44,276 nt of DNA from an uncultured Elusimicrobiales bacterium (GTDB lineage Bacteria; Elusimicrobiota; Elusimicrobia; Elusimicrobiales; Elusimicrobiaceae), in NCBI GenBank assembly GCA_944324095.1, contig CALUUY010000008.1, positions 1 to 44,276 on the forward strand, in the 5' to 3' direction. The notes below the pieces were generated by a model, which was not told the origin of the DNA, made no database searches, and saw only the letters and a list, made by a program, of their open reading frames with translations. Shown one piece after another: positions 17,576 to 19,446 of the stretch. The position numbers were made by a program, and so were the translations under genes. Numbering within the stretch: position 1 is the first letter of the stretch; every line of letters begins with the position of its first letter.

Positions 17576-18103
17576 TTAATAAACGGTGACCCAATCCCGC
17601 GTGGTAAAAGTAAATTCCACACGGCGGTTAGTGCGGCGGCCCGCGTCGGAATGATCCAACGTTAAGGGGCGGTCTTTCCCGTGGGCGTGAATGCGGATTC
17701 TATCCGCCGGAATGCCGCGGCTAACTAAATAAGATTTCATCGCCGCCGCGCGCGAACCGCTCAGCCAATAATTGTATTCCTTAGAGCCGATAATATCGGT
17801 ATGCCCTTCAATAATCAAACGAAGGTGCGGCTGGTCTTTCATAATATTGGCTACTTTATCCAAAAACAGGTAGGCATACTCCGGCGGGCGGATAGAGTCA
17901 AACTCATAAGTAATGGTGGGCAATTGCATACTTTTAAGCATTTGTTTTTCACTTTGCTTATACAGTTTAGCGTTGCGTTTGGCTTCCAACTCTATGACAG
18001 GATCGGGTTTAACCTCGGGTATTTCGTCTTCTTTTTGAGCTGAAGCGCAGGCCATAAAACTAAATGCAAATAAAAATAATAAAGCGGCTTTGGTAAAATT
18101 CAT
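17576..18103 (-). CDS. OmpA-family (Pal-like) lipoprotein
   Basis: From the ATG at 18103 the protein has 175 residues: a lipobox signal (MNFTKAALLFLFAFSFMAC, Cys19), a short linker, then an OmpA C-terminal peptidoglycan-binding domain. Domain landmarks are ITYEFDSIRP, the core IIEGHTDIIGSKEYNYWLSGSRAAAMKSYLVSRGI and the late RRTNRRVEFTF. Such proteins tether the outer membrane to peptidoglycan, as Pal does in Tol-Pal, but no tol genes are nearby. A longer frame begins at 18166, but only 18103 gives a signal peptide directly behind an AGGAGGG ribosome site. The flank upstream is the DnaA-box region. Confidence 0.9.
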   Translation of the reverse strand: MNFTKAALLFLFAFSFMACASAQKEDEIPEVKPDPVIELEAKRNAKLYKQSEKQMLKSMQLPTITYEFDSIRPPEYAYLFLDKVANIMKDQPHLRLIIEGHTDIIGSKEYNYWLSGSRAAAMKSYLVSRGIPADRIRIHAHGKDRPLTLDHSDAGRRTNRRVEFTFTTRDWVTVY

Positions 18104-18181
18104 AAAAACCCTCCTGCACCCATTATAGCAAAACCCCTGCCGGCGTGCATAAAAATTTTTGAACAAAATCCCCTTCCACAG

Positions 18182-18318
18182 TTATCCACACCCTGTTGAT
18201 AAGTTGTGGATAACTACCCCCTATACTCTACAACTATCCACAAAAAAATGCTTTTTTACAGCCCCTATATCAGGTTTGGGCGGAAAGGCTGTGGATAACT
18301 ACATAAAGCTGTGGATAA
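18182..18318. other. DnaA-box cluster, candidate replication origin (oriC)
   Basis: Four perfect copies of the DnaA box TTATCCACA lie in 137 bp: one on the plus strand at 18182-18190 and three on the minus strand at 18205-18213, 18290-18298 and 18310-18318. A one-mismatch copy (CTATCCACA) is at 18234-18242. All four perfect copies share the longer string AGTTATCCACA, and the last two start exactly 20 bp apart. AT-rich DNA and a long hairpin follow (18319-18480). Boxes plus adjacent AT-rich DNA in a gene-free stretch is the layout of a bacterial oriC. dnaA is not in this window, so alternatives are a DnaA-titrating locus or a DnaA-regulated promoter. Confidence 0.6.
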
Positions 18319-18336
18319 CTTTTAAAATTGTATAGT

Positions 18337-18404
18337 AAAAAGCCTATTTTAAAAGGGGGTTCTCCGTCGGAGAATTAAATTTTCCCCTAAAAAATAGGCT
18401 TTTT
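18337..18404. repeat. Compound inverted repeat in AT-rich DNA
   Basis: Perfect 14-bp arms AAAAAGCCTATTTT (18337-18350) and AAAATAGGCTTTTT (18391-18404) enclose a G-run/C-run pair (18355-18359 with 18384-18387). A nested hairpin TTCTCC-GTC-GGAGAA (18360-18374) lies inside. Either strand ends in a T-run, so it could act as a bidirectional terminator, a cruciform beside the DnaA boxes, or part of a small RNA. Confidence 0.7.
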
Positions 18405-18436
18405 GGGTTTTTTCTAAAAAAACTGTTGACAACTCT

Positions 18437-18476
18437 GCCTTTTTTTGTTCAATTTTTGCTAAAAAAAGGCTTTTTT
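18437..18476. terminator. AT-rich hairpin at the 3' end of the esterase-like gene
   Basis: GCCTTTTTTT (18437-18446) pairs with AAAAAAAGGC (18461-18470) and is followed on the plus strand by TTTTTT. It abuts the stop of the minus-strand gene and probably serves as its transcription end, although the T-tract is better placed for plus-strand transcripts. Confidence 0.5.
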
Positions 18477-19446
18477 ATTGTTTTTTAAGCGTAATTTTGG
18501 TTGAAAAGTCTTTTTGGGGCGTTTTTACCGTTAATTTTACGCGGCCGGGCTCCGCCCCGGATATTGCCGCCAGGCGTCCCTGTGCGGCATCCCAGTCTAA
18601 AACCGGCGGGCTGATTAATATAGAAGGCGGATAAAAACCATACTGTTCCCCATTCTGTAACCGCGCGCTAATAGCAACTTGTGCAGCCCCCTGCAAAGGT
18701 AATTTTTTGGGAGAAATATCCCATATTAGCTTTTTAATCTGCACTTTTTCTGCAGGGGCAAACCAATAGCTAAAGGGATTTTCTTCAAAAGGCAGCGTTT
18801 GGTTACTTTCTTTTAAAACAAAATGTTCACCATATTTAAAATGGGCCAATTCCAGCTTGGCTTGAAAATCCGCCAGTGTTTCCCGCTCGCCCAAGGCTAT
18901 TAAACGCAAGTTACGCGGCAAAACGGCCGCATTTAAAAGGGCCGGGTCTGCCTGTAACAATAGCACTTTGGAAAATAAAAGCCTTCTATATAACAGCGAA
19001 AACGCCGCCACCCCGCCAGGTGTTCCCTGCGCGATAAGAGCGCGGTGGTCATCGTCGGCAAAAGTGGGGTAATTGGTGTCCACATACGGGATTAATTCTT
19101 GCGTAAAAAACCGGGTTAAACGGCCGGCATCAGCCAAATCCTCTTCCGTTAAATTCACCCCCACCACCAAAGCCTTGGGCTGGGATTTTTCTATAAACCG
19201 GGCAGCCGCCGGGGCGTCTTTCGGGGAAGCTCCCAACACATACACCACCGGATAGCGCCCCATCAACGGAACCTTTTCTTCCGGCAAAAAGAAAGTAACT
19301 GTTTTGCCCGGTAAGGTTTGGGAAGGGAAATTAATAAAAGTCTCTCTTCCGGGGTTAATTAAAAGAAGCGGATCGGTGGATGACTGCTGGGCAAATCCCC
19401 CCACCGCCAAGAAACAGACCCATAAAAGCATCAAATATTTTTTCAT
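18475..19446 (-). CDS. Secreted esterase-like alpha/beta hydrolase lacking the catalytic serine
   Basis: From the ATG at 19446 the protein has 323 residues with a signal peptide (MKKYLMLLWVCFLAVGGFAQ). Residues about 40-225 resemble the esterase D/Fes-type alpha/beta hydrolases: PVVYVLG after the first strand, and FFTQELIPYVDTNYPTFADDDHRALIAQ before the nucleophile elbow. That elbow should read GxSxGG but reads QGTPGG (residues 140-145), so the serine is replaced by Thr142. The C-terminal 100 residues look like a beta-sandwich add-on (WDISPKKLPLQG onward). It may be a non-catalytic relative. A TGTTACAAT extended -10 lies 7 nt before this ATG, which supports this start over the upstream one at 19500. 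Confidence 0.75.
   Translation of the reverse strand: MKKYLMLLWVCFLAVGGFAQQSSTDPLLLINPGRETFINFPSQTLPGKTVTFFLPEEKVPLMGRYPVVYVLGASPKDAPAAARFIEKSQPKALVVGVNLTEEDLADAGRLTRFFTQELIPYVDTNYPTFADDDHRALIAQGTPGGVAAFSLLYRRLLFSKVLLLQADPALLNAAVLPRNLRLIALGERETLADFQAKLELAHFKYGEHFVLKESNQTLPFEENPFSYWFAPAEKVQIKKLIWDISPKKLPLQGAAQVAISARLQNGEQYGFYPPSILISPPVLDWDAAQGRLAAISGAEPGRVKLTVKTPQKDFSTKITLKKQ

What the first reader, a model, noticed from the sequence alone, without database searches (positions are those of the whole stretch)
18182..18318. Five-box DnaA cluster in a gene-free, AT-rich stretch: candidate oriC away from dnaA
Four perfect TTATCCACA boxes plus one single-mismatch box lie in about 140 bp, and the perfect ones share the longer AGTTATCCACA. 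Two lie 20 bp apart in the same orientation, and AT-rich DNA follows directly. A random 9-mer should not occur four times in 140 bp. Gene orientation also shifts nearby: from 19.6 to 26.5 kb every gene is on the plus strand, while 8.5-18.1 kb is mostly minus, as expected around an origin. No dnaA, dnaN, gyrB or rpmH is in view, so this would be an origin separated from dnaA, or a DnaA-titrating site.
Basis: partly seen in the sequence, partly recalled or inferred. Interest (0 to 1): 0.75.

Follow-up and report, generated by a model that had tools for sequence, protein, structure and literature searches.

The report
Non-origin DnaA-box cluster beside pal
A tight, family-wide conserved cluster of binding sites for the replication initiator DnaA in gut Elusimicrobiaceae is not the replication origin, which lies hundreds of kilobases away at dnaA, but most likely a DnaA-controlled switch in front of an outer-membrane lipoprotein gene.

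Summary
In detail: four perfect and two one-mismatch DnaA boxes lie in 137 bp of a 371-bp intergenic gap, far beyond chance. The origin reading fails. In three relatives from three genera GC skew flips at dnaA; in the one-contig genome the cumulative minimum is at base 508, with dnaA at 586. The cluster lies in uniformly signed skew, 338 kb and at least 437 kb from dnaA in two of them. The dnaA-dnaN gap carries its own conserved boxes. The cluster itself is real and old: a sequence model finds it in 64 of 66 genomes of the genus and most of the family, with fixed box spacing (+12, +11, +83-85, +20). It almost always sits in front of the same Pal/OmpA-like lipoprotein gene. Pal homologues in the sister family lack boxes. 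In one clade where pal moved behind pyrG the cluster decayed; in one genome it persists without pal. Replichore position is not conserved (about 40, 57 and 80%). Two boxes form the 2-bp-spaced tandem 'double DnaA box' that marks DnaA occupancy in E. coli. Best reading: a non-origin DnaA assembly site acting in cis on the pal promoter; DnaA titration is the main rival. Nothing here is tested by experiment.

The parts
18182..18190 (+). DnaA box B1, TTATCCACA, perfect
   Evidence: aligned in 26 genomes
18194..18202 (-). DnaA box B2, TTATCAACA, one mismatch (perfect in many relatives); 3-bp gap to B1
18205..18213 (-). DnaA box B3, perfect; with B2 a tandem double DnaA box with a 2-bp gap
   Evidence: double-box signature from PMC11317965
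18224..18232 (+). TACTCTACA, nearly invariant non-box element 17-19 bp after B3 in the genus; 1 occurrence in 800 kb of background
18234..18242 (+). extra one-mismatch box CTATCCACA, conserved only in part of the genus
18290..18298 (-). DnaA box B4, perfect; 83-85 bp after B3 in most genomes of the genus
18310..18318 (-). DnaA box B5, perfect; 20 bp after B4 throughout the genus
18328..18336 (+). TTGTATAG element after B5; also present in the dnaA-dnaN gap of the genus
18362..18372 (.). CTCCGTCGGAG palindrome, core CCG(T/A)CGG conserved in most of the genus
   Evidence: the 7-mer itself is common in the genomes
18423..18431 (+). CTGTTGACA element, conserved across the genus
18122..18130 (-). 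extended -10 promoter element TGCTATAAT facing pal, conserved across the genus; 60 bp from B1; no matching -35
17576..18103 (-). Pal/OmpA-like lipoprotein gene (175 aa), the gene the cluster stays next to in the family
18475..19446 (-). esterase-like gene whose 3' end bounds the intergenic gap; not found in a genus subclade that keeps the cluster

Best explanation
It is not oriC. It is a high-affinity chromosomal DnaA assembly site, gained within the Elusimicrobiaceae, that lies upstream of the pal-like lipoprotein gene and most likely acts in cis on its promoter. DnaA would load on the inverted/tandem triple B1-B3 and on the pair B4-B5 about 84 bp away, perhaps joined by a DNA bend. From B1-B3, centred roughly 60-95 bp upstream of the inferred start, it would activate (or, in relatives where the boxes lie closer, repress) an extended -10 promoter that has no -35. 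This would tie production of an outer-membrane/peptidoglycan lipoprotein to DnaA level or nucleotide state, with some DnaA titration as a side effect. Shown: box content, spacing, conservation, pal linkage, and the skew minimum at dnaA in relatives. Inferred: DnaA binding, direction of regulation, looping, physiological role.
For: Skew and strand bias flip at dnaA, not here. In 29 genomes of the genus B1-B2 is 12 bp and B2-B3 is 11-12 bp; B3-B4 is 83-85 bp in all but two, and B4-B5 is 20 bp. The cluster is beside pal across the genus, including a subclade where another gene replaces the esterase on the far side. Pal homologues of the sister family f2 have no boxes upstream, apart from one lone box in one genome. 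In a single clade where pal now follows pyrG, boxes upstream of pal are gone apart from one one-mismatch box in G075, and the old site is left with 1-2 lone boxes; G072, G082, G084 and G085 nowhere have three perfect boxes together. In the genus the extended -10 is conserved and lies 48-50 or 58-61 bp from B1 in nearly all genomes, one helical turn apart, although the ATG-B1 distance varies from 63 to 131. No sigma-70 promoter with a -35 is found in the region. B2-B3 is a tandem double box with a 2-bp gap, the best predictor of DnaA occupancy in E. coli ChIP-seq, found at datA, DARS1/2, nrdA, polA and purH (PMC11317965).
Against: No binding or expression data. G079 keeps a cluster on another contig without pal, next to a dehydrogenase gene, while its pal beside the esterase has no boxes. 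Relatives are not independent: the helical-turn pattern could be one or two indels, and the loss with pal's move is one event. The distance from B1 to the pal start is quite different in E. minutum-like G067. Five boxes plus conserved elements over about 330 bp is more than one promoter needs.
Confidence: 0.5

Rival explanations
1. A DnaA-titrating or DnaA-nucleotide-switching locus working in trans on initiation at dnaA-dnaN, like E. coli datA or DARS or the Bacillus/Streptomyces DnaA-box clusters; linkage to pal is incidental.
For: Densest DnaA-box cluster of the genome, mostly consensus boxes (4 of 26 perfect boxes of the assembly). Architecture fixed over more than 130 bp, double box as at datA and DARS. 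G079 keeps a cluster without pal. The B3-B4 spacer keeps its length while its sequence drifts, as expected for a bent nucleoprotein complex.
Against: Replichore position is not kept (about 40%, 57% and 80% of the arm), whereas datA and DARS keep theirs in E. coli (PMC4585315). The cluster is absent from 99%-complete relatives G072, G076 and G085, though datA is dispensable too. Only one HU-family protein and no IHF pair was found in the eight genomes searched, while datA and DARS2 need IHF and HU substitutes poorly at DARS2 (PMC4245941).
Confidence: 0.33
2. A functional chromosomal replication origin separated from dnaA, or a second origin.
For: Dense consensus boxes, AT-rich flank, TTGTATAG shared with the dnaA-dnaN gap.
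Against: 400 kb of one-signed skew around it in G043; no inflection over 160 kb in G067, where the cumulative minimum is at 508 bp beside dnaA; skew flips at dnaA in G014 and G088; the cluster is lost in viable relatives.
Confidence: 0.05
3. A DnaA-independent element: the 9-mers serve another DNA-binding protein, or the conservation reflects an unannotated RNA gene.
For: Conserved elements besides the boxes (TACTCTACA, TTGTATAG, CTGTTGACA, CCGTCGG palindrome).
Against: Perfect DnaA consensus with the double-box spacing; no Rfam match in the intergenic gap; spacer sequence is not conserved while its length is.
Confidence: 0.07

Closest known systems
DnaA-regulated promoters with double DnaA boxes in E. 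coli (nrdA, polA, purH, nrdD, mioC, dnaA)
   Same: Tandem boxes with a 2-3 bp gap upstream of a gene, outside oriC (PMC11317965).
   Different: The target is a Pal/OmpA-like lipoprotein gene rather than a nucleotide, replication or RNA-metabolism gene; at least five strong boxes, with a second pair about 84 bp farther; nothing tested by experiment.
datA and DARS1/DARS2 of E. coli
   Same: Chromosomal non-origin DnaA-box clusters (3-6 boxes) with conserved boxes and spacing, on a replichore arm (PMC4585315).
   Different: No IHF pair found in the genomes searched; position relative to oriC varies between genera; linked to one gene.
Non-origin DnaA-box clusters of Bacillus subtilis and Streptomyces coelicolor
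   Same: Box clusters outside oriC in distant phyla; reported to repress untimely initiation (as cited in PMC4585315).
   Different: Those are described as close to oriC; this one is 338 kb from dnaA in G067 and at least about 437 kb in G014.
dnaA-upstream box module of other Elusimicrobiota families
   Same: Inverted/tandem two- or three-box module with similar 2-3 bp gaps; it is what the cluster model mainly hits outside the family.
   Different: It sits at the dnaA start; in the genera that carry a strong pal cluster the dnaA start has at most a single nearby box.

Membership tests
Chromosomal replication origin (oriC) | GC-skew and coding-strand switch at the locus | tested here: not met
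   switch at dnaA, none at the cluster
Chromosomal replication origin (oriC) | Cluster of DnaA boxes with adjacent AT-rich DNA | tested here: met
Chromosomal replication origin (oriC) | Marker-frequency peak, unwinding, autonomous replication | not testable with these tools
   needs growing cells or purified proteins
Chromosomal replication origin (oriC) | Present in all members of the lineage | tested here: not met
   no equivalent cluster in G072, G076, G085
datA/DARS-type DnaA control locus | Three or more DnaA boxes with conserved spacing outside oriC | tested here: met
datA/DARS-type DnaA control locus | IHF dependence (IHF alpha and beta subunits) | tested here: not met
   one HU-family gene per genome in 8 genomes; own genome incomplete
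datA/DARS-type DnaA control locus | Conserved relative distance from oriC | tested here: not met
   about 40%, 57%, 80% of the arm in three genera
datA/DARS-type DnaA control locus | Stimulates ATP hydrolysis or ADP release on DnaA | not testable with these tools
   biochemistry
DnaA-regulated promoter | Double DnaA box (2-3 bp gap) upstream of a gene | tested here: met
   B2-B3 gap 2 bp upstream of pal
DnaA-regulated promoter | Promoter of that gene near the boxes | tested here: inconclusive
   conserved extended -10 without -35; no transcript data
DnaA-regulated promoter | Transcription changes with DnaA level or box mutation | not testable with these tools
   experiment needed

The most novel reading that the evidence does not exclude
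In the Elusimicrobiaceae the DnaA-responsive module that elsewhere in the phylum sits at the start of dnaA was functionally replaced by a remote cluster fused to the pal promoter, so that DnaA homeostasis and envelope lipoprotein synthesis share one switch. Other families and genera g3 and g4 of this family carry a box pair at dnaA; g4 carries both; g1, g2, g5 and g6 have the pal cluster and at most one box near the dnaA start.
Probability: 0.12. Interest if true: 0.75.

Novelty: new member of a known kind. Interest (0 to 1): 0.42.

Why it matters
Box-based origin prediction would call this cluster oriC; the skew evidence shows why that would be wrong for this family. If DnaA does control pal, the replication initiator would directly set production of an outer-membrane/peptidoglycan tether, a link between replication and envelope growth for which a full-text search found no report. 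A relative with the cluster appears to be E. minutum, which is in culture, so the link could be tested.

Tried and rejected
oriC reading: rejected by skew. Fixed gene-dosage position as support for datA: rejected, because position varies. Esterase as the linked gene: rejected, since a subclade without a detectable esterase keeps the cluster beside pal. Known RNA family: none in the gap. Hairpin between B5 and the esterase: an inverted repeat around the CTCCGTCGGAG palindrome is visible in the window and its closest relatives, but its arms diverge elsewhere in the genus, so it was not pursued. Model hits outside the family: nine of twelve loci inspected lie at dnaA, so they are origin-type arrays, not the pal cluster. 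A literature search for Elusimicrobia with DnaA boxes gave nothing relevant. In the spacing table the B4 anchor was misplaced for L140, L123, L124, L190 and L191, so their B4/B5 values are ignored; direct scans show 20-bp pairs in all five.

Full report
The observation. The window (G000:C8, a 1.58-Mb draft genome in 87 contigs) has perfect DnaA boxes at 18182+, 18205-, 18290- and 18310- and one-mismatch boxes at 18194- and 18234+. These are all its perfect boxes. Simulated windows average 0.27 perfect boxes and never have two within 150 bp, and no other place in the assembly has three within 300 bp. The boxes lie in a 371-bp gap between an OmpA/Pal-like lipoprotein gene (17576-18103, minus) and the 3' end of an esterase-like gene (18475-19446, minus). 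Named relatives are uncultured Elusimicrobiales/Elusimicrobia. G067 is one contig of 1,643,562 bp, which from memory is the size of Elusimicrobium minutum Pei191; this identity was not verified.

It is not the origin. The dnaA gene is on another contig (C22), followed by boxes in the dnaA-dnaN gap that are conserved in the genus. The own genome is too fragmented to join the two loci, so relatives were used. In G014 (two contigs) skew goes from -0.035 to +0.051 across dnaA and plus-strand coding from 0.32 to 0.98, while the cluster lies in negative skew on the other contig, at least about 437 kb from dnaA. In G067 the cumulative minimum is at base 508 with dnaA starting near 586; the cluster at 338.7 kb lies in a steady rise over 160 kb. 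In G043, 400 kb around the cluster has one sign. In G088 (another genus) skew flips at dnaA and the cluster lies in negative skew roughly 145 kb from the terminus-side switch. The last figure, and the arm fractions of about 40, 57 and 80%, are estimates from 20-kb samples.

It is conserved. Loci around the esterase homologue in 30 genomes of the genus show the array beside it in all. A sequence-only model built from 26 of them finds it at E < 1e-10 in 64 of 66 genomes of the genus, and in g2 and most of g5. In 29 genus genomes spacing is B1-B2 12, B2-B3 11-12 and B4-B5 20; B3-B4 is 83-85 bp except for one genome at 74 and one misanchored value. The B3-B4 spacer keeps its length but not its sequence. 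TACTCTACA, TTGTATAG and CTGTTGACA are also conserved.

It stays with pal. Pal homologues flank the cluster in 39 of the 40 loci first examined (L137 was not resolved by the ORF rule used), and in the subclade without a detectable esterase. Pal homologues of sister family f2 have no boxes upstream, save one lone box in G108, so the cluster was gained within Elusimicrobiaceae: absent in g3, weak in g4 and g6, strong in g1, g2 and most of g5. In one g5 clade (G072, G075, G085 on the DnaA tree; G082 and G084 by the same neighbourhood) pal follows pyrG, has at most one one-mismatch box upstream, and the old site in G072, G075, G082 and G085 keeps one or two perfect boxes. G076 has no pal match at the strict threshold and no cluster. 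The exception is G079, with a cluster beside a dehydrogenase gene and a box-free pal elsewhere.

How it may work. B2-B3 is a tandem double box with a 2-bp gap; in E. coli such pairs (2 or 3 bp) mark 15 of 16 DnaA-bound regions, including oriC, datA, DARS1/2, nrdA, polA and purH (PMC11317965). A conserved extended -10 (TGCTATAAT, minus strand) faces pal, with no -35. B1 lies 58-61 or 48-50 bp from it in all but one of 29 genus genomes, a difference of one helical turn, while the distance to the start codon varies twofold. That places B1-B3 where class I activators bind (general knowledge), so DnaA-dependent activation of pal is the leading guess; related sequences are not independent, so the phasing is suggestive only. 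Titration or nucleotide-state control is the main rival: it is supported by G079 and by the strength of the array, and weakened by variable replichore position, by the absence of an IHF pair in the genomes searched, and by loss of the array in the clade where pal moved.

Comparison with the rest of the phylum. Outside the family the model hits mainly dnaA loci, where a two- or three-box module with 2-3 bp gaps abuts the dnaA start. Genera g3 and g4 still have a box pair there; g1, g2, g5 and g6 do not. Whether the pal cluster derives from, or replaced, that module cannot be decided from 9-bp sites.

Verdict. A real, conserved, non-origin DnaA-box cluster: a new member of a known kind (promoter-linked or control-site DnaA clusters), unusual in its partner gene. 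Binding and function are untested.

Noticed in passing
L002 (G000:C27), ORF 1-2814 +: A second DnaA-type AAA+ domain (Pfam Bac_DnaA, E 4e-31) inside a protein of more than 930 aa with a long low-complexity N-terminal part; a similar large-frame match is present in nearly all genomes of the family searched.
   Followed up: partly
G067:C1:1066161-1066766, G088:C1:86851-87498, G087:C2:192284-192895: Small (221-257 aa) DnaA-AAA+ homologues that could be Hda-like regulators, in genera g2 and g5.
   Followed up: no
G079:C21:3956-4236 (L316): The box cluster lies beside an iron-type alcohol dehydrogenase gene, apart from pal; relocation or assembly error.
   Followed up: partly
G014:C1:217104-217199: Two perfect DnaA boxes 10 bp apart and a third one-mismatch box about 5 kb upstream of dnaA.
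   Followed up: no
window 18337-18405: Inverted repeat AAAAAGCCTATTTT...AAAATAGGCTTTTT around a CTCCGTCGGAG palindrome, kept in the closest relatives only; the palindrome core is kept in most of the genus.
   Followed up: partly
L023 position 1538+ and equivalent places in other loci of the genus (inside the esterase 3' end): An additional, often perfect DnaA box conserved within the esterase coding sequence in much of the genus but not in the window.
   Followed up: no
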